Source: Syntrophaceae bacterium UBA4778
GTDB lineage: Bacteria; Desulfobacterota; Syntrophia; Syntrophales; UBA4778
DNA: 12,386 nucleotides
Reading direction: 5' to 3'
Assembly (NCBI GenBank): GCA_002403175.1
Contig: DHHG01000136.1
Location: forward strand, 1-12,386
In this document: in pieces, positions 1,457 through 12,221 of the stretch
Layout: each line of letters starts with the position of its first letter
Numbering within the stretch: position 1 is the first letter of the stretch
The notes under the pieces: model-generated
What the model was told of the DNA's origin: nothing
Databases searched by the model: none
What the model saw: only the letters and a program-made list of their open reading frames with translations
Position numbers and translations under genes: made by a program

Positions 1457-1522
1457 GTAGCAAGAAGCTCAGGCTCAGCAATAAAAAATAATCTGAAAAC
1501 TCTCATCGATTCCATCACCTGA
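1456..1522 (+). pseudogene. Remnant of the 3' end of a LuxR-type PAS regulator gene
   Basis: This stretch aligns with the last ~23 codons of the intact regulator gene (11174-11241), including KKLxLxNKK of the final HTH helix and the shared end ATCGATTCCATCACCTGA. It is about 2 nt shorter in the A-rich part after 1478, which breaks the frame: read from the left it hits TAA after NKK. Similarity stops abruptly near 1456, where the candidate terminator of the PanE-like gene begins. I infer that a second regulator gene once lay here, directly upstream of the CoA-transferase gene, and was deleted almost entirely. Confidence 0.75.
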
Positions 1523-1569
1523 TACGGGGTATCTCCCTGTATTTGCCTTGTTCTTTTCCCGTATTGCAT
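1522..1569 (+). promoter_or_regulatory. Operator-like element, left copy site A
   Basis: Two direct half-sites, CCTGTATT (1536-1543) and CCCGTATT (1558-1565), start exactly 22 bp apart with a T-rich TTCTTTTC spacer end. An inverted half-site ATACGGGG (1522-1529) precedes them and can also form a hairpin with CCCTGTA (1535-1541) right after the regulator-remnant stop codon. The second half-site overlaps TTGCAT (1564-1569), the proposed -35. The same design recurs at 1931, 7240, 11255 and 11632. Confidence 0.65.
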
Positions 1570-1593
1570 TTTCCCCATTAGTCCTCCAATAAT
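1564..1593 (+). promoter_or_regulatory. Candidate sigma-70-type promoter next to site A
   Basis: The -35 is TTGCAT (1564-1569) and the -10 is AATAAT (1588-1593), 18 bp apart. Both hexamers and the spacing are unchanged in the right copy (11283-11288 and 11307-11312). The overlap of the -35 with an operator half-site would suit a class II type activator. Confidence 0.5.
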
Positions 1594-1599
1594 GCCTCA

Positions 1600-1698
1600 A
1601 TTTTCCCCCCCTCAGAAAATGAAATACCAGGGGGTAGACGCTTTTATCATGTGAATAAGATGGTAGCGCCTGTAGGCGCGTCGTCCCCCCTGGTTTTT
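1600..1698 (+). ncRNA. Candidate ~100-nt small RNA or attenuated leader ending in a strong terminator
   Basis: A transcript from the site A promoter would begin near 1600. It would end at a hairpin whose outer stem pairs CCAGGGGG (1627-1634) with CCCCCTGG (1686-1693), continues through ACGC/GCGT, carries an inner GCGCCT/AGGCGC hairpin (1675-1688 region upstream of the right arm) and is followed by TTTTT (1694-1698). The whole unit is present in the right copy. It could simply be the old terminator of the lost regulator gene. No coding potential is evident. The stretch 1699-1910 shows no gene and no clear signal. Confidence 0.4.
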
Positions 1699-1914
1699 GG
1701 GAGCAATCCTGGATGAAGTTGTTCTTCGATTCAATACCGATCAGATAGGAAATGAGGGCAGATTTTAGGAAAAATTTGCTTAAAGTTTTTCTGATAACTG
1801 CTTATCTATCAGTTGACCCACACGCCTGAAAAAAGCCGGAGAAATTGTGATCAGTTTTATGGGACCTTTCAGTTGCCAGACTGCAGATTGATGGCCACGG
1901 ATTGGTTCCGCACC

Positions 1915-1987
1915 GGATATATGTTTTCCCCCTATATTAACCTCATTCTTTTCCTGTATTGCCTATTCAGTCTGACTTTCATACAAC
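1915..1987 (+). promoter_or_regulatory. Operator-like element and promoter, left copy site B (upstream of the CoA-transferase)
   Basis: Direct half-sites CCTATATT (1931-1938) and CCTGTATT (1953-1960) start 22 bp apart, preceded by an inverted half-site GGATATATG (1915-1923). The second overlaps a -35-like TTGCCT (1959-1964); 17 bp further is TACAAC (1982-1987), a fair -10. The predicted start lies about 160 bp before the CoA-transferase ATG and leaves a long leader. This is the most likely promoter of the CoA-transferase gene. Confidence 0.6.
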
Positions 1988-2007
1988 ATGTGCAAATCCA
2001 ACCTCTA

Positions 2008-2068
2008 CCGTCCCGCAAGGCGGATATTGTTTAGCTCTCTCCTTTTCAATGTCTTATCTGTGGGACGG
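2008..2068 (+). promoter_or_regulatory. Stem structure in the CoA-transferase 5' leader
   Basis: CCGTCCCGCA (2008-2017) can pair with TGTGGGACGG (2059-2068), ten pairs with one G-U, enclosing about 40 nt. In the right copy the same arms keep nine of ten pairs. A role in leader-level regulation or mRNA stability is possible; nothing identifies it as a known riboswitch. Confidence 0.4.
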
Positions 2069-2155
2069 CGGGTAGGATCAGCTGGACCGATCAGCAACAC
2101 AATTTCGCTATATAAAAAAATAAATTTTAAATCAGAAATTAACAAGGGGGAATAA

Positions 2156-3493
2156 ATGGCTGTAAGCTGGGAAGATAGTTACAGGAGAAAATGTGTATCT
2201 TTTAAGGACGCAGCGAAACAGGTCAAAGATAATGATTTTATTGGTGTCGGACTGGGCATAGGCGCCTGCAGTCCGGACATGTATCATGCTATTCTAGCTC
2301 GATGGGAAGAATTGAAGGGCGTTACGATCAGCGATACAGTGATGGTACGCCCCGCCAGACTCTATGATCCGAGCTTCATGGCCGAACTGGAAGGGCACAT
2401 CAATTACGCGCCCGGCTTTGGCATGATCCTCAACCGTAAAATCAGTGAAGCCAAACATTCGGATTTCCTTCCTCTGATGACCTCGGACGGCGCAACCAAA
2501 TATGGGTCCCGCTCCGATATCTTCATCTGTATGGTAACACCTCCGAACAAGCATGGATACGTCAATCTCGGACTGACCAACTTCCACGAGATGGACACTA
2601 TCCGGATCGGCCGGGCAACGGGAAGGCTGCGCGTCATCATTGGCGAAGTGAACGATCAGATGCCGGTCATCTTGGGAAACAACTGGATTCACGTTTCCGA
2701 GTTCGACTACTTCGTCGAGAATTCAACCAAAATACCGACGGTAGGCCGGGCGCAACCGGGCGAAAGCGAAAGGAAAATCGGGCAAAACGTCCTGGAACTC
2801 ATCAATGACGGCGACACGATCCAGATGGGACTCGGCGGTATTCCGGAAGCTGTAGTTGCCGGCCTGGAAGGTAAGAAGGATCTGGGAGTCCTGACAGAGA
2901 TGTTTCCTATCGGTCTCCATCAGCTGGTCGAAAAGGGGATTGTCACGAACGAACGAAAACCATTCCATAAAGGCGTGACCATTGCTACATTCTGCATCGG
3001 CGACCAGGATATGTACGACTATGTTAAGGAGAATCCAGCGTGCGAATTCTATCCAGGATCGTATACGAATAACCCCGCCTTCATTGCCCAACATCCCAAC
3101 ATGGTCGCCATGAATATGGCCTTGATGATCGATTGCAGTGGCCAGATCGCGTCCGAAGGCATAGGACACCGCCAAGTGAGCGGTAGCGGAGGCCAGCTCG
3201 ACTTCATGGCTGGCGCTTATTATTCTCCAGGCGGTAAGGGCGTCACCTTAATGACTGCTGCGCGTACGATGAAAGACGGCACCCTTGTTTCTTCAATTGT
3301 GCCCGAATTGCCTCCCGGAACGCCTGTCACTGTCCCGCGGACCTATGCACAATACGTTGTTACAGAATTCGGAATTGCCGACCTGAGGGGCAAGACACGG
3401 CGAGAACGGGCCGAAGCCCTGATTAATATCGCCCACCCCGATTGTCGGGGCGAACTGAGAAACTGCCTGAAGAAAAATTTCTATTACAGTTAG
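2156..3493 (+). CDS. CoA-transferase, acetyl-CoA hydrolase/transferase family
   Basis: A 445-residue protein of the family that includes 4-hydroxybutyrate, butyryl-CoA:acetate and related CoA-transferases. Visible signatures are GLGGIP (225-230), the TEMF segment with the expected catalytic Glu248, GSGGQLDFMAGA (343-354) in the CoA-binding region, and TEFGIADLRGKT (403-414) followed by IAHPD (425-429). The enzyme would move CoA between acyl-CoA and a free acid through a glutamyl-CoA thioester, so it can activate an incoming acid or release acetate. The acid substrate cannot be read from sequence. Start: AAGGGGG lies about 6 bp before ATG. Two operator-like elements and a long structured leader precede it; a terminator follows 8 bp after the stop, so it is probably transcribed alone. 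A truncated paralogue lies at 11835-12221. Confidence 0.92.
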   Translation: MAVSWEDSYRRKCVSFKDAAKQVKDNDFIGVGLGIGACSPDMYHAILARWEELKGVTISDTVMVRPARLYDPSFMAELEGHINYAPGFGMILNRKISEAKHSDFLPLMTSDGATKYGSRSDIFICMVTPPNKHGYVNLGLTNFHEMDTIRIGRATGRLRVIIGEVNDQMPVILGNNWIHVSEFDYFVENSTKIPTVGRAQPGESERKIGQNVLELINDGDTIQMGLGGIPEAVVAGLEGKKDLGVLTEMFPIGLHQLVEKGIVTNERKPFHKGVTIATFCIGDQDMYDYVKENPACEFYPGSYTNNPAFIAQHPNMVAMNMALMIDCSGQIASEGIGHRQVSGSGGQLDFMAGAYYSPGGKGVTLMTAARTMKDGTLVSSIVPELPPGTPVTVPRTYAQYVVTEFGIADLRGKTRRERAEALINIAHPDCRGELRNCLKKNFYYS

Positions 3494-6950: not shown

Positions 6951-7224
6951 AAATCCCGTTCATCATTTTATCCTTCATAAAAATATAAGCTGTAAGCCTC
7001 CTGCCTCTGTGAAGAGGATACTTCAGGTTTCTGGTATCGATGACCGAGTTGTTTGACGCGTTGGCAATGACAATACTCGAATTGACAAAGAGTTGGCTGC
7101 CTTGAGGATGCCCGCTACTTCTTTACAGACAAAATCAGTTCGTTAACTCTCCGGAGCGCATGATCCTTGCCGTTGATCGATATTGGAACCGACATAGAAA
7201 AGAATGGAGCCCCCCACATTTCAT

Positions 7225-7297
7225 CATATAGGGAAAATCCATATATTACCCCGGTTTTTTTCCTATATTGTAATTTTGTTGTGAGCCCGTCATTAAT
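7225..7297 (+). promoter_or_regulatory. Operator-like element and promoter upstream of the hydratase/dehydrogenase gene
   Basis: Direct half-sites CATATATT (7240-7247) and CCTATATT (7262-7269) start exactly 22 bp apart, with an inverted half-site CATATAGGG (7225-7233) before them. The second overlaps TTGTAA (7268-7273) as -35; ATTAAT (7292-7297) lies 18 bp on as -10. This region is not part of the 0.9-kb repeat, so its match to sites A and B is independent evidence that the element is functional. The predicted start lies about 100 bp before the ATG at 7402. Confidence 0.65.
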
Positions 7298-7401
7298 AAC
7301 CAAATTTCCAGTTAAAAAACAATGCCACATGGGTGGACGAAACCGTTATCATCCTATGTGGACAAAGACAGCGTAACAATTACGGAAAGGAACTAACGTT
7401 T

Positions 7402-9396
7402 ATGAATAGTATTTTTCAGTTAAAGTCGGAGAAGAATATCGGCATCGTCACCTTTGATGTTACGGGTGATGCCATGAACACGTGGACGGATGAGGCTTTT
7501 TCCAGTTTCTTCAGATTGCTGGATGAATTAGAGAAAACGAATACATTGAAGGGGTTAATCCTCATTTCAGGAAAACATGATAACTTCTTTGCAGGTGCCA
7601 ACCTGAAAAATCTTGCCCAATTATCGAGCCCGGAAGAAGTCCTGCAGACCCTTGAGCTTTTCCATGGTGCCTTCAATAGGCTGGAAAAACTCCCCATGCC
7701 CACGCTCTCCGCTATCCACGGATTTTGCCTCGGAGGTGGACTGGAGCTGGCACTGGCCTGCACTGCCCGGATCGCCAAAGAAGGTAAGACAACGATGATC
7801 GGACTTCCTGAATGTAATGTTGGTCTCTTACCCGGCGGAGGCGGTACTCAGCGCCTTCCACGGTTGATCGGTCCTGCCGCAGCGGAACTGATTGTTAAGG
7901 GGACGATGCTGTCCTCACCAAAAGCGCTGGAAATGGGTATCATTGACCGCCTGATCCCGGCCGATGGCGACCTTCTTGCAGCTGCTAAGGAATTCCTTAA
8001 TGAAATTATTGCTGGCAAGGCTAATCTAAAGCGTCCCGAACAGGATTTTTCCCAGATTGATGAACTGATTGAAGCAGCAAAGAAGACAGCTCTAAAGATG
8101 GCACGAGGCCGTGCGCTGCCGGGCCCCATGCTGGCGCTGAAGTCTATTCAGGACGGGGTCAAGGTACCCCTGCTCGAGGGACTGGAGATTGAGAAAAAAA
8201 ATTTCACCCAGGCCATCTTGTCAAACGAGGCCAAGGGAAGCATCAATACGTTTTTTATTAAGGGCATGACAGATAAACCCAAAGCCATGATGACAGAAGG
8301 ATTCGTGCCGAAGCCGCTCAGGAAAATCGGGGTCCTCGGTTTTGGGACAATGGGGCGAGGCATCATCATTGATATCATTACGAATATGAGAGTCCCGGTA
8401 CTGGTTAAAGATGTCCCTGAGGCGTTGGAGCCAGGGAGAGCATTTGTTCGCAAGGTCTTGGATGGAATGGCAGAGAAAGGACGTCTCAAGGCGCCCGTTG
8501 ACGAGTTTATGAGCCTGATCACTGTTACCGCCGATTACAGTTGGTTCAGTGATGTTGATCTCGTAATAGAAGCTGTTTTTGAAGACCTGAAAATTAAGGA
8601 GAAGGTCTACGGCGAACTCTGCAAGGCAGTGAAGGATTCTTGCATAATCGCTAGCAATACTTCATCTATCCCCATTGCGCAGATGACAGAGTATGTAACT
8701 TATCCTGCCAGATTCGGTGGCCTCCACTTCTTCTCTCCTGTATGGTTGATGCAGCTTGTAGAGGTGATTCGCGGAGAACTGACAAGCCGGGGCACCGTCA
8801 ATAATCTCCTGAATTTTGCAGCATCTATCAATAAACGTCCCATTGTCTGCCGGGATAATCCAGGCTTTGTCGTAAATGCTATGCTTTTTCCCATGCTCTG
8901 GGAGGCATTTCGTTGCCTGGAGGAGGGCAATGCAATCGAGAAAATTGATGAAGCAATGTTGGCGTTTGGAATGCCGGTCGGTCCCATTCGTCTCACTGAC
9001 GAAATCGGTATTGATATCCCATACAAGATTTTCAATGGCATGGGTATACGGCAGAATACACTCGCCAATATCGTGGAGTCCGGCCGCCTAGGATTAAAGA
9101 AATCGGGTAAAGGTTTCTTCCTGAAAGATGGTAATGTCGATCCGGAAATCCTGCCCCTCATCGCCAAAGCAGAAAAGAACGATCTGAAGAATACGGAACA
9201 GATCCAGGAAGTCATTCTTGAGTCAATGGCGAAAGCGGGAAAAGACCTCCTCGATAAAAGGATCATTGATGATGTGCGAATGATCGATGTCGGCATGATA
9301 TGGGGCGTAGGCTTTCCAGCAGATAAAGGAGGACCCATGAAATGGGCTGATCTCATCGGTATGAGCAAGCGCTTGTTCGGAAAGAACTTATATTAA
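7402..9396 (+). CDS. Fused enoyl-CoA hydratase / 3-hydroxyacyl-CoA dehydrogenase (FadB/FadJ-like)
   Basis: A 664-residue bifunctional protein. Residues 1-~200 form a crotonase domain with NFFAGANL (61-68) and both catalytic glutamates, E115 (GGGLELAL) and E137 (LPECNVGLLPGGGGTQRLPRL). From about 308 there is a Rossmann NAD domain (GVLGFGTMGRG, 310-320), then SNTSS (418-422) and HFFSPV with catalytic H442 paired to E454, followed by the C-terminal dehydrogenase domains (NPGFVVNAML, 486-495) and a second helical repeat. It would hydrate 2-enoyl-CoA and oxidise L-3-hydroxyacyl-CoA to 3-ketoacyl-CoA with NAD+. I chose ATG 7402 over an in-frame ATG at 7333 because GGAAAGGA sits about 10 bp before it and family similarity starts there. 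It has its own promoter and operator-like element and no close downstream partner. Confidence 0.93.
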   Translation: MNSIFQLKSEKNIGIVTFDVTGDAMNTWTDEAFSSFFRLLDELEKTNTLKGLILISGKHDNFFAGANLKNLAQLSSPEEVLQTLELFHGAFNRLEKLPMPTLSAIHGFCLGGGLELALACTARIAKEGKTTMIGLPECNVGLLPGGGGTQRLPRLIGPAAAELIVKGTMLSSPKALEMGIIDRLIPADGDLLAAAKEFLNEIIAGKANLKRPEQDFSQIDELIEAAKKTALKMARGRALPGPMLALKSIQDGVKVPLLEGLEIEKKNFTQAILSNEAKGSINTFFIKGMTDKPKAMMTEGFVPKPLRKIGVLGFGTMGRGIIIDIITNMRVPVLVKDVPEALEPGRAFVRKVLDGMAEKGRLKAPVDEFMSLITVTADYSWFSDVDLVIEAVFEDLKIKEKVYGELCKAVKDSCIIASNTSSIPIAQMTEYVTYPARFGGLHFFSPVWLMQLVEVIRGELTSRGTVNNLLNFAASINKRPIVCRDNPGFVVNAMLFPMLWEAFRCLEEGNAIEKIDEAMLAFGMPVGPIRLTDEIGIDIPYKIFNGMGIRQNTLANIVESGRLGLKKSGKGFFLKDGNVDPEILPLIAKAEKNDLKNTEQIQEVILESMAKAGKDLLDKRIIDDVRMIDVGMIWGVGFPADKGGPMKWADLIGMSKRLFGKNLY

Positions 9397-9609: not shown

Positions 9610-11241
9610 ATGCCAGAAGTAATTAATCACAAGAGCGTGGCTCGACAGTATCAATTTCTGGAAAACTCTCTTCGAGAGAGCCAGGACGTTCTTAACACCA
9701 TCCTGCAGAAGTCTTTTGCTGCCATTTATGTCATCCAGAAAGGGAAAATTCGCAGGGTAAACCCCAAAGCCGCAGACTACACCGGTTATTCCGTTGAAGA
9801 ACTGGTTAGGATAAAAACAAGCAGCCTCATTCTTCCCGCCGACAGAGAGGATGCCCAGCGCAGAGCTCGTGCAATGCTGCGGGGCGAGTCGATAGCACCT
9901 TACGCATACCGAATAATTACCAAACAGGGCAATATTCGCTGGATCATAGAAACGGTATCCTTGATCACATATGAAGGGAGGCCGGCCGTTCTCGGGAACT
10001 GCATGGATATAACCGAACATCGGCTGGCCATTCAGGCGCTTCAGAATTCAGAGAATTTGTATCGGACCCTCTTCGAAACGACCCTTGCGGCGACTGTCAT
10101 CATTGAGGAAGATACCACTGTTTCCTTGGTGAACTCGGCATTCACAAGATTGTCGGGTTACAGCCGCGAAGAATGGGAAGGAAAGAAGAGCTGGACGGAA
10201 GTAGTTGCGCTTGAAGACAAAGAAAGGATGATGGGATATCATAGTCTCAGACGGATCAACCCCGATCAGTCGCCCAATAACTACGAATTCGGATTTATCA
10301 CTCGCCATGGAGAACTCCGGAACGTTATTCTTATGGTTGACTTAATACCGGGTACCAAGAAGAGTGTGGCCTCTTTTATCGATGTCACCGAGCACAAGCG
10401 TGCCGTGGTCAAACTGCAGGAATCTGAGAATCTCTATCGAACTATTTTCGAAAATACGGGAACGGCGACGATCATCATCGATGAGGATCTGAAGATCGTC
10501 CTGGCCAATACCGAGTTCGAGATCCTGACGAAGGCACTCTGGAAAGAAAAGCGCCAATGGACGGATTTGTTCAGGCCAAAAGACCTGGAGAAGATGGTTC
10601 AGTTTCAGCAAGCCAGGAATTCGCCCGTGAAGCAGGAAACCGTGCGGAACTTTCCGTGTGAAATGTGTGGCAAGGGAGGGGACAAAAAAATCGTCCTGAT
10701 TAGCAGCGCTCCCATTCCTGATTCGGGCAAAACGGTTGTTTCCATAACAGACATCAGCGAGCAGAAGCGGATCGAAGCCGCCCTGAGGGTTAGGGAACAG
10801 GAGATTGAAAAAAAATCCCGGAAACTGGAAGAAATGAATACTGCTCTGAAAGTCCTCCTGGACAAGAGAGAGGAAGATCGCAGGATGTTGGAAGAAACGG
10901 TCCTGAACAACGTGAGCGAACTGATTATCCCCAATCTGGCCGAACTGAAATCCAGAAAACTTTCGCCTTCCGATCTCGAACTGCTCAAAATTGTGGAATC
11001 CAATATCGTCAAAATTGTTTGCCCCTTCTCACAGCGGCTTCAGTCGAAGCACCTGAGATTGACCCAGAAGGAAATACAGATTGCGAACTATATACGTGAA
11101 GCCAAGTCGACAAAGGAAATTGCTGAGATCATGCACATCAGCACGGGGACGGTTTCTTTCCATCGGGACAACTTGAGAAAGAAACTCGGGCTCGGCAACA
11201 AGAAAATCAATCTGAAAAGTCACATCGATTCCATCACCTGA
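9610..11241 (+). CDS. Triple-PAS sensor regulator with C-terminal LuxR-type HTH
   Basis: A 543-residue cytoplasmic protein with no membrane segment. PAS 1 is about 27-136 (ending DITEH), PAS 2 about 149-264 (ending DVTEHKR) and PAS 3 about 273-387 (ending DISEQKR). PAS 2 and 3 open with nearly the same SENLYRT(L/I)FE string and look like an internal duplication. A charged coiled coil covers ~388-430, then a linker, then a LuxR/NarL HTH at ~482-535 (LTQKEIQIANYIREAKSTKEIAEIM, HISTGTVSFHRDNLRKKLGL). It has no receiver, kinase or GGDEF domain, so it probably senses a ligand or redox state directly. PAS 3 holds a CxxC (C350, C353). AGGA about 8 bp before ATG supports the start. It lies between the catabolic genes and a further operator-bearing region and is the natural candidate to bind the CCYRTATT elements; that is inference. 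Confidence 0.9.
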   Translation: MPEVINHKSVARQYQFLENSLRESQDVLNTILQKSFAAIYVIQKGKIRRVNPKAADYTGYSVEELVRIKTSSLILPADREDAQRRARAMLRGESIAPYAYRIITKQGNIRWIIETVSLITYEGRPAVLGNCMDITEHRLAIQALQNSENLYRTLFETTLAATVIIEEDTTVSLVNSAFTRLSGYSREEWEGKKSWTEVVALEDKERMMGYHSLRRINPDQSPNNYEFGFITRHGELRNVILMVDLIPGTKKSVASFIDVTEHKRAVVKLQESENLYRTIFENTGTATIIIDEDLKIVLANTEFEILTKALWKEKRQWTDLFRPKDLEKMVQFQQARNSPVKQETVRNFPCEMCGKGGDKKIVLISSAPIPDSGKTVVSITDISEQKRIEAALRVREQEIEKKSRKLEEMNTALKVLLDKREEDRRMLEETVLNNVSELIIPNLAELKSRKLSPSDLELLKIVESNIVKIVCPFSQRLQSKHLRLTQKEIQIANYIREAKSTKEIAEIMHISTGTVSFHRDNLRKKLGLGNKKINLKSHIDSIT

Positions 11242-11312
11242 TACGGGGTTTCTCCCTGTATTCGCCTTGTTCTTTTCCTGTATTGCATTTTCTTCATCAC
11301 TCCTCCAATAAT
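11241..11312 (+). promoter_or_regulatory. Operator-like element and promoter, right copy site A
   Basis: Directly after the regulator stop codon. Half-sites CCTGTATT at 11255-11262 and 11277-11284 are identical and 22 bp apart, with inverted ATACGGGG (11241-11248) before them. The -35 TTGCAT (11283-11288) and -10 AATAAT (11307-11312) are 18 bp apart. Confidence 0.6.
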
Positions 11313-11318
11313 GCCTCA

Positions 11319-11412
11319 ATTTTTCTCCCCTCAGAAAAGGAAATGCCAGGGGGATAGACGCTTTTACCGTGTGAATGGTAGCGCCTGCAGGCGCGTCCTC
11401 CCCCTGGTTTTT
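11319..11412 (+). ncRNA. Right copy of the candidate small RNA / terminator unit
   Basis: TCCCCCTGG (11399-11407) pairs with CCAGGGGGA (11346-11354), ACGC/GCGT extends the stem, and a perfect 14-bp palindrome GCGCCTGCAGGCGC (11381-11394) forms the inner hairpin; TTTTT follows (11408-11412). It is at least the intrinsic terminator of the regulator gene. With the site A promoter it could also define a ~94-nt RNA. The interval 11413-11590 shows nothing further. Confidence 0.45.
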
Positions 11413-11615
11413 GGGGATCAATCCCGGATGAAGTTGTTCTTCGATTCAATACGGATCAGATAGGAAATGAGGGCAGATAAAGAGAAAAATCATGATAACT
11501 GTTTTTTGTCAGTTGCCCCACACGCCTGAAAGACAGTCGGAGAAATTTTGATCGGTTATACGGGACCCTTCAGTGGTAAGGCTGTAGATTAGGGGCCACG
11601 GATTGATTCCGCACC

Positions 11616-11689
11616 GGATATATGTTTTCCCCATATATTAACCTCATTCTTTTCCTATATTGCCTATTCAGTCTGACTTTCATACAACA
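11616..11689 (+). promoter_or_regulatory. Operator-like element and promoter, right copy site B
   Basis: CATATATT (11632-11639) and CCTATATT (11654-11661) start 22 bp apart, preceded by inverted GGATATATG. TTGCCT follows as -35 and TACAAC 17 bp later as -10, as in the left copy. The first half-site differs from the left copy (CA for CC) and now equals that upstream of the hydratase/dehydrogenase gene. Confidence 0.6.
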
Positions 11690-11708
11690 TGAAAAAGTAC
11701 AACCTCTA

Positions 11709-11767
11709 CCGCCCCACAGGCGGATGTTGTTTAGCCTCTCCTTTACAATGTCTTGTCTGTGGGACGG
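11709..11767 (+). promoter_or_regulatory. Right copy of the 5' leader stem
   Basis: CCGCCCCACA (11709-11718) can pair with TGTGGGACGG (11758-11767) with a single mismatch, at the same place in the leader as the left-copy stem at 2008-2068. Confidence 0.35.
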
Positions 11768-11834
11768 CGGGGAGGGTCAGCTGGACTGATTCAGCAACTT
11801 AATTTCTCTATATAAAAAAATAAAGGAGAAATAA

Positions 11835-12221
11835 ATGGCTGCAAGCTGGAAAGATAGTTACAGGAGAAAACGTGTATCTTCTAAGGATGCAGCGAAACAG
11901 GTCAAAGACAATGATTTTATTTGTGTCGGATTGGGCATAGGCGCCTGCAGTCCGGATATCTATCATACTATTCTGGCTCGATGGAATGAATTGAAAGGCG
12001 TTAGGATCAAAGAAGCATTGATGGTACGCCCCGCCAAACTCTACGCTCCGAGCTTCCTGGAGTTGATCGAAGCCGATCGCGTCGTCTGCGTCCTGCCCAT
12101 CTATAAATTTCCCAAAATCATCGATTCCAATCTATACAGATGGTGGATAAAGCGAATTACCGATATTCAGCATAAAGTTACAGGCCTGATCGGTTATATG
12201 ATCGGGACTGAGATGAAATAG
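11835..12221 (+). pseudogene. Truncated, chimeric CoA-transferase paralogue
   Basis: A 128-codon frame with a good AAAGGAG ribosome-binding site. Codons 1-75 match the N-terminus of the CoA-transferase at 2156-3493; the remaining ~53 codons (starting LELIEADRVVCVLPIYK, ending YMIGTEMK) match no part of it and I do not recognise them. The catalytic Glu region, the GSGGQ motif and the whole C-terminal domain are missing, so it cannot be a working CoA-transferase. In the shared part I count 16 amino-acid changes against 7 silent codon changes, including G30C in the glycine-rich segment, which suggests relaxed selection. It keeps both operator-like elements and the leader upstream, so it may still be transcribed. 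It is either a deletion-fusion relic or a small new protein; the first is likelier. Confidence 0.75.

What the first reader, a model, noticed from the sequence alone, without database searches (positions are those of the whole stretch)
7225..7297. Five copies of a 22-bp-spaced direct-repeat operator shared by separate promoters
Pairs of CCYRTATT-like half-sites exactly 22 bp (about two helical turns) apart occur at 1536/1558, 1931/1953, 7240/7262, 11255/11277 and 11632/11654. In each the second half-site runs into TTG of a plausible -35. The 7240 copy is outside the long repeat, and sites A and B within one repeat are not copies of each other over their flanks, so there are three independent occurrences. 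The spacing suggests cooperative binding of an activator on one DNA face. The LuxR-HTH regulator at 9610 is the obvious candidate, giving a local regulon of CoA-transferase, hydratase/dehydrogenase and possibly a small RNA.
Basis: partly seen in the sequence, partly recalled or inferred. Interest (0 to 1): 0.75.

Follow-up and report, generated by a model that had tools for sequence, protein, structure and literature searches.

The report
Operator embedded at regulator's stop codon
The five repeated DNA sites are very probably landing sites for a neighbouring gene-control protein of fatty-acid breakdown, and many related regulators carry the same kind of site exactly where their own gene ends, so a regulator can be matched to its DNA target.

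Summary
In detail: five 22-bp-spaced half-site pairs, 0.01 expected by chance, no other spacing from 9 to 59. Two pairs are duplication copies; three are independent. The element is larger than reported: each site also has an inverted half-site 15 bp upstream of the first direct one, and TTG in a fixed register. Site A' starts at the stop codon of the PAS-LuxR gene (9610-11241); that codon is part of the operator. The architecture recurs behind the stop codon of part of this regulator family: TTG lies exactly 44 nt after the stop's first base in 22 of 89 divergent regulators (10 of 820 control gene ends), and the full signature is in 16 of 89 against 0 of 829 controls. Direct-repeat identity peaks at 22 and 11 bp; the inverted repeat has one register. 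In three relatives the best-supported site follows the regulator. Best reading: a local class-II operator/promoter of the adjacent regulator, multiplied here to three promoters of a beta-oxidation cluster. Geometry resembles BvgA promoters. New variant of a known kind. No binding or expression data; the window's genome is not held.

The parts
1520..1566 (+). Operator A (copy of A' made by the duplication): left inverted half-site 1521-1528, direct half-sites 1536-1543 and 1558-1565, TTG of -35 at 1564-1566
   Evidence: 44/47 identical to A'
1588..1593 (+). candidate -10 of promoter A (AATAAT, 18-bp spacer)
   Evidence: sequence; not listed by the consensus scan
1597..1705 (+). candidate short RNA with terminator-like hairpin behind promoter A
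   Evidence: fold z -3.1; not in the terminator list
1915..1961 (+). Operator B in front of the CoA-transferase gene (half-sites 1916-1923 inverted, 1931-1938, 1953-1960; TTG 1959-1961)
   Evidence: 45/47 identical to B'; the next 29 nt are 29/29
1982..1987 (+). candidate -10 of promoter B (TACAAC, 17-bp spacer)
   Evidence: sequence
1990..2090 (+). structured stretch between operator B and the CoA-transferase start, probable 5' leader
   Evidence: fold z -3.6; duplicate copy 11690-11790 z -4.6
2156..3493 (+). CoA-transferase gene (AcetylCoA_hydro; best NCBIfam match butyryl-CoA:acetate CoA-transferase TIGR03948, 257.7 bits, below its cut-off of 674.8)
7224..7270 (+). Operator C in front of the hydratase/dehydrogenase gene (half-sites 7225-7232 inverted, 7240-7247, 7262-7269; TTG 7268-7270)
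   Evidence: flanks unrelated to A and B
7292..7297 (+). candidate -10 of promoter C (ATTAAT, 18-bp spacer)
   Evidence: sequence
7333..9396 (+). FadJ-like enoyl-CoA hydratase/3-hydroxyacyl-CoA dehydrogenase; the start is probably the ATG at 7402
   Evidence: most listed homologues are 663-667 aa against 687 for the ORF
9610..11241 (+). PAS-PAS-PAS-GerE(LuxR) regulator, 543 aa, the proposed cognate regulator
11239..11285 (+). Operator A': begins with the regulator's TGA stop; inverted half-site 11240-11247, direct half-sites 11255-11262 and 11277-11284, TTG 11283-11285
11307..11312 (+). candidate -10 of promoter A' (AATAAT, 18-bp spacer)
   Evidence: sequence
11316..11420 (+). candidate short RNA with terminator-like hairpin behind promoter A'
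   Evidence: fold z -3.8; not in the terminator list
11616..11662 (+). Operator B' in front of the truncated CoA-transferase copy
11683..11688 (+). candidate -10 of promoter B' (TACAAC, 17-bp spacer)
   Evidence: sequence
11835..12221 (+). truncated copy of the CoA-transferase gene
   Evidence: no Pfam match

Best explanation
The five sites are class-II operators of the neighbouring PAS-PAS-PAS-GerE regulator. SHOWN by sequence: each is a 47-bp element made of an inverted half-site, a direct half-site 15 bp on, and a second direct half-site 22 bp further that runs into the TTG of a -35; part of the related regulators carry the same layout right behind their own stop codon. INFERRED: a regulator dimer binds the upstream inverted pair; a second dimer, or further protomers on the same DNA face, is placed cooperatively two turns downstream and touches RNA polymerase at the weak -35, switching on the gene behind it. 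The ancestral unit is regulator, operator at its stop codon, then target. In this genome the unit was duplicated and the operator multiplied, so that regulator-adjacent RNA, CoA-transferase and hydratase/dehydrogenase promoters share one control. The PAS signal is unknown.
For: Five matches vs 0.01 expected. A matrix from the five sites, applied to 79 loci (1.1 Mb), has as its top three hits L002 (27.5), L001 (25.5) and L005 (12.6; next best anywhere 9.6), each starting 10 nt after the first base of the regulator's stop codon, as in the window. Family set of 157 tails and 89 representatives (<80% HTH identity): TTG exactly +44 from the stop in 22 of 89 vs a mean of 1.44 of 89 at positions 55-105 and 10 of 820 control gene ends. 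In those 22 tails direct-repeat identity is 0.642 at lag 22 and 0.562 at lag 11; the other lags from 6 to 32 are at most 0.41. Half-sites of one operator match each other more than those of other operators (lag 22 p 0.0004; lag 11 p 0.0034); inverted pair 0.739 vs 0.511, reached by 0 of 400 permutations. Full signature in 16 of 89 vs 0 of 829 controls. HTHs with E[IVFL]HRxH go with an AACC half-site in 6 of 7 vs 3 of 82 (post hoc). Window copies: operators 44/47 and 45/47 identical, against 168/212 for 1706-1914 and 85/101 for 1991-2090; the 29-30-nt pieces beside the operators are 25/29, 27/30 and 29/29.
Against: No binding, footprint, start-site or expression data. 34 of 89 representatives have no TTG at 40-50, and only 16 of 89 meet the full signature, so the rule covers part of the family. 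HTH distance does not track operator distance among the 22 tails (Mantel r -0.02, p 0.58). Lag 33 is not significant (p 0.07). No inverted partner of the promoter-proximal half-site stands out within 13 bp. The -10 boxes are weak and one search lists none of these promoters. In relatives no regulon beyond the adjacent site was found, so sites B and C rest on this window alone. Activation rather than repression is inferred from position and poor core promoters.
Confidence: 0.74

Rival explanations
1. Same regulator and operator, but acting as a repressor: binding over the -35 blocks polymerase until the PAS domains sense the substrate.
For: The proximal half-site overlaps the -35, a position where repressors also sit.
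Against: Core promoters are poor (TTGCAT/TTGCCT/TTGTAA, weak -10), as expected for activator dependence; the phased array running up to the -35 is the geometry of BvgA activation.
Confidence: 0.13
2. The palindrome behind the regulator is a transcription terminator or RNA hairpin, and the rest is coincidence.
For: A hairpin-like inverted repeat directly after a stop codon is the usual place of a terminator; some operators hold T-runs a few nt further on (at C, 7 nt after the right arm).
Against: The same inverted plus direct layout stands at B, B' and C, about 375 bp or more beyond the nearest gene end; no T-run directly follows the arm; the terminator scan does not list these places; 0 of 829 control gene ends carry the signature.
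Confidence: 0.03
3. The sites belong to another regulator or to an alternative sigma factor that reads all these promoters.
For: No binding data tie the 9610 protein to the sites.
Against: The layout follows the stop codons of this regulator family at a fixed distance; half-site sequence differs between paralogues but agrees within each operator, which one shared factor would not produce.
Confidence: 0.07
4. The copies reflect segmental duplication or a mobile repeat without function.
For: A/A' and B/B' are copies made by the 9.7-kb duplication.
Against: A, B and C share the operator, not the flanks; copies are better conserved in the operators (44/47, 45/47) than in 1706-1914 (168/212); relatives have diverged sites at the same place.
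Confidence: 0.03

Closest known systems
BvgA-type promoters (NarL/FixJ, GerE HTH), Bordetella Pfha/Pptx
   Same: GerE-type HTH (BvgA's family recalled); binding centres every 22 bp, one monomer per helical turn; at Pfha the high-affinity site furthest upstream, last site abutting the -35 (passages of PMC7250471).
   Different: BvgA is a phosphorylated response regulator, this is a PAS protein without a receiver domain in Pfam; the Pfha primary site printed reads as adjoining inverted heptads, here the gap is 7 bp; here the operator contains the regulator's own stop codon.
PAS-LuxR regulators of Streptomyces (archetype PimM)
   Same: PAS plus LuxR-type HTH in one protein, local cluster control (starts of abstracts in the listing).
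   Different: Three PAS domains and a conserved linker here; not antibiotic clusters; the PimM operator consensus was not compared.
PhoB pho box
   Same: Direct repeats 11 bp apart with the activator at the -35 (recalled; one search gave only a listing of one PhoP paper).
   Different: OmpR-type winged helix (recalled), not GerE; no inverted half-site.

Membership tests
GerE/LuxR-type HTH transcription regulators | C-terminal GerE domain | tested here: met
   PF00196 at 484-531, E 1.3e-13
NarL/FixJ response regulators (BvgA type) | N-terminal receiver domain | tested here: not met
   Pfam lists PAS families and GerE only, at E up to 0.001
BvgA-like 22-bp phased class-II promoter (works like, not member of) | 22-bp spacing of binding sites, last one abutting the -35 | tested here: met
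   5 of 5 window sites; lag-22 peak in 22 family tails
BvgA-like 22-bp phased class-II promoter (works like, not member of) | upstream inverted high-affinity site | tested here: met
   inverted half-sites 6-7 of 8 in all five, one register in the family; affinity itself not tested
BvgA-like 22-bp phased class-II promoter (works like, not member of) | every site a head-to-head pair of half-sites | tested here: inconclusive
   no inverted partner stands out within 13 bp of the proximal half-site
BvgA-like 22-bp phased class-II promoter (works like, not member of) | regulator binds and activates | not testable with these tools
   needs footprint and reporter
PAS-LuxR family (PimM) | PAS sensor fused to LuxR HTH | tested here: met
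PAS-LuxR family (PimM) | binding to the PimM palindrome | not tested
   not compared
PhoB/OmpR regulators | winged-helix Trans_reg_C domain | tested here: not met
   absent from the list

The most novel reading that the evidence does not exclude
In a large family of deltaproteobacterial PAS-GerE regulators the regulator's own stop codon is built into the operator that drives the next gene. Regulator, operator and target then form one compact cassette that can move or duplicate as a unit, and the many paralogues with their adjacent operators would give a ready-made protein-DNA recognition code for GerE domains, including cassettes whose first product is a small RNA.
Probability: 0.55. Interest if true: 0.7.

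Novelty: new variant of a known kind. Interest (0 to 1): 0.6.

Why it matters
These mostly uncultured bacteria carry several such PAS-LuxR regulators per genome (1-11 matches in the 120 of 149 genomes with a hit), and I know of no targets for them. A fixed operator at the regulator's stop codon would let targets and DNA specificity be read from sequence alone. It also points to how acyl-CoA pathways may be switched in these organisms. Seven searches of the held library showed no description of it: five found no paper, one paper that is unrelated by title, and fifty papers of which I saw ten titles. The library lacks most subscription papers.

Tried and rejected
The exact paired half-site pattern in 79 relatives gave one hit at spacing 22 (L038) and one each at 12 and 20. 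A first genome pattern was my own error (spacing 23 instead of 22): 19, 19, 18 and 0 hits against 12, 11, 15 and 2 for the reversed control; not used. Corrected pattern: hits in 3 of 10 genomes. G002 had one hit (0 mismatches, behind the regulator). G003 had four: the regulator site at 1 mismatch, three at 3. G001 had two at 3 mismatches, one of them the regulator site. A looser pattern gave one hit in G001, one in G002 and three at equal mismatches in G003. Of the other hits inspected, L306, L309, L114 and L120 lie inside long reading frames (L306 UvrA-like, L309 KpsF-like, by eye); L310 is intergenic and borderline. L103-L106 and the remaining 3-mismatch hits (17 of 51 genomes matched) were not inspected. 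HTH versus operator Mantel test: negative. A four-unit 11-bp array: lag 33 not significant. Rfam on the window at E up to 5: two matches, both far below gathering score. The leader behind operator C does not fold unusually well (z -1.0). A second regulator end in L021 (6826) was dropped; one search used 157 tails, after dropping matches under 100 bits, incomplete at the C-terminus, with less than 110 nt behind the stop, or identical in the first 90 nt.

Full report
THE OBSERVATION. The five half-site pairs are present at the stated coordinates and nowhere else in the window. The chance expectation is 0.01. A/A' and B/B' come from one long duplication: repeat families D1-D4 and D6-D9 cover 1484-2381 against 11203-12060, and the alignment extends it left to about 1463 (51/59). 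The left copy keeps only the last codons of the regulator; the right copy keeps only the start of the CoA-transferase. A, B and C share the operator but not the flanks.

THE ELEMENT. Index 0 is the first base of the regulator's stop codon at A'. All five sites have an inverted half-site at 1-8, direct half-sites at 16-23 and 38-45, and TTG at 44-46. The inverted match is 6-7 of 8, the 22-bp direct match 7-8 of 8, and a middle copy at 27-34 is weak, 3-5 of 8. Candidate -10 boxes follow after 17-18 bp but are weak, and a sigma-70 consensus scan lists none of these promoters.

THE REGULATOR. The gene at 9610-11241 encodes three PAS domains, a linker and a GerE domain; no receiver domain was listed.

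RELATIVES. A matrix from the window sites, run over 79 loci, put its three best hits at the same place behind the closest regulators, each starting 10 nt after the first base of the stop codon. The third (L005, 12.6) is only a little above the next best (9.6). I then collected 3' ends of this regulator family: 157 distinct tails, 89 representatives below 80% HTH identity. The sample leans to the best-scoring matches. The lists are capped; the loci given by the tools plus 60 chosen stretches were read. TTG stands exactly at +44 in 22 of 89 (mean 1.44 at positions 55-105). 55 of 89 have it at 40-50, where about 16 would be expected from the control mean of 13.8 of 820 per position. Control gene ends have TTG at 44 in 10 of 820.

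REPEAT STATISTICS. In the 22 tails, chosen for TTG only, direct-repeat identity to the proximal half-site peaks at lag 22 (0.642) and lag 11 (0.562). Half-sites within one tail agree beyond the family consensus: lag 22 p 0.0004, lag 11 p 0.0034, lag 33 p 0.07. The inverted pair stands out in one register of the 14 tried, 0.739 against 0.511 between tails. The complete signature (TTG, inverted at least 5 of 8, direct at least 5 of 8, shift -4 to +8) is in 16 of 89 representatives and 27 of 157 tails, and in 0 of 829 control gene ends. The window's own A' tail is one of the 16. The signature was defined after looking at part of these tails, so its rate is descriptive; the controls are the independent part.

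SPECIFICITY. Seven representatives carry E[IVFL]HRxH in the recognition helix; six of these have AACC in the left half-site, against 3 of 82 others (all tails: 6 of 8 against 7 of 149). This was found after looking and is not corrected for kinship. Two of the 3 others (L159, L215) score low for the operator signature. A general HTH-operator distance correlation is absent (r -0.02, p 0.58).

TARGETS. Next genes of the 22 were called by a simple rule. Besides the window's own truncated copy, the next gene is a CoA-transferase-family protein in five (L002, L003, L187, L246, L258; Pfam). Others are an AMP-binding enzyme (L001), a GntP/CitMHS-type permease (L005), methylmalonyl-CoA mutase (L217), a PHB-depolymerase-type esterase (L152) and a universal stress protein (L184). 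Three had no Pfam match (L191, L234, L266). L208 had too little sequence, and seven (L137, L186, L194, L230, L241, L260, L291) were not scanned; of these L186, L230, L241, L260 and L291 have no gene by the rule for 440-606 bp.

ONE SITE PER GENOME. In G001-G003 the best-supported pattern site is the one behind the regulator, though in G001 and G003 other hits tie it in mismatches; those inspected are one inside a reading frame and one borderline intergenic. A second pattern, for another paralogue group, matched 5 of 6 genomes, and in all five the best hit lies right behind a regulator match of this family; one further hit (L306) lies in a UvrA-like frame.

MECHANISM. Shown: architecture, position, conservation. 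Inferred: the adjacent regulator binds; an upstream dimer on the inverted pair recruits protomers two turns downstream; contact at the weak -35 activates. The nearest experimental model is BvgA: head-to-head dimers every 22 bp, one monomer per turn, the last abutting the -35 (passages of PMC7250471). Differences are the PAS input, the 7-bp gap and the missing inverted partner downstream.

SMALL RNA. Two other regulator groups have conserved stretches without Rfam match in the same place. Support for their structure by compensatory change is thin: 3 of 50 pairs with an unfavourable covariation term of +2.4, and 2 of 40 pairs.

VERDICT. A real, functional-looking operator, best read as a local class-II activator site of the adjacent PAS-LuxR protein. 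The placement at the regulator's own stop codon, shared by part of the family, is the new part.

Noticed in passing
window 1463-2400 and 11177-12080: A 9.7-kb-spaced direct repeat flanks the beta-oxidation cluster; the left copy keeps only the last codons of the regulator gene, the right copy only the start of the CoA-transferase gene.
   Followed up: partly
window 1597-1705 and 11316-11420: Terminator-like hairpin (z -3.1, -3.8) behind operators A and A'; candidate short RNA.
   Followed up: partly
window 1990-2090 and 11690-11790: Strongly folding leader (z -3.6, -4.6) between operator B/B' and the CoA-transferase start.
   Followed up: partly
L015:11348-11600, with L016, L017, L021, L027: Conserved RNA-like stretch with terminator-like hairpins right behind the regulator's operator; no Rfam match.
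   Followed up: partly
L008:3718-3850, with L009, L010, L011: Second conserved, foldable stretch behind another regulator group; no Rfam match.
   Followed up: partly
window 7333-7402: The ORF listing starts the hydratase/dehydrogenase at GTG 7333; homologue lengths suggest ATG 7402.
   Followed up: no
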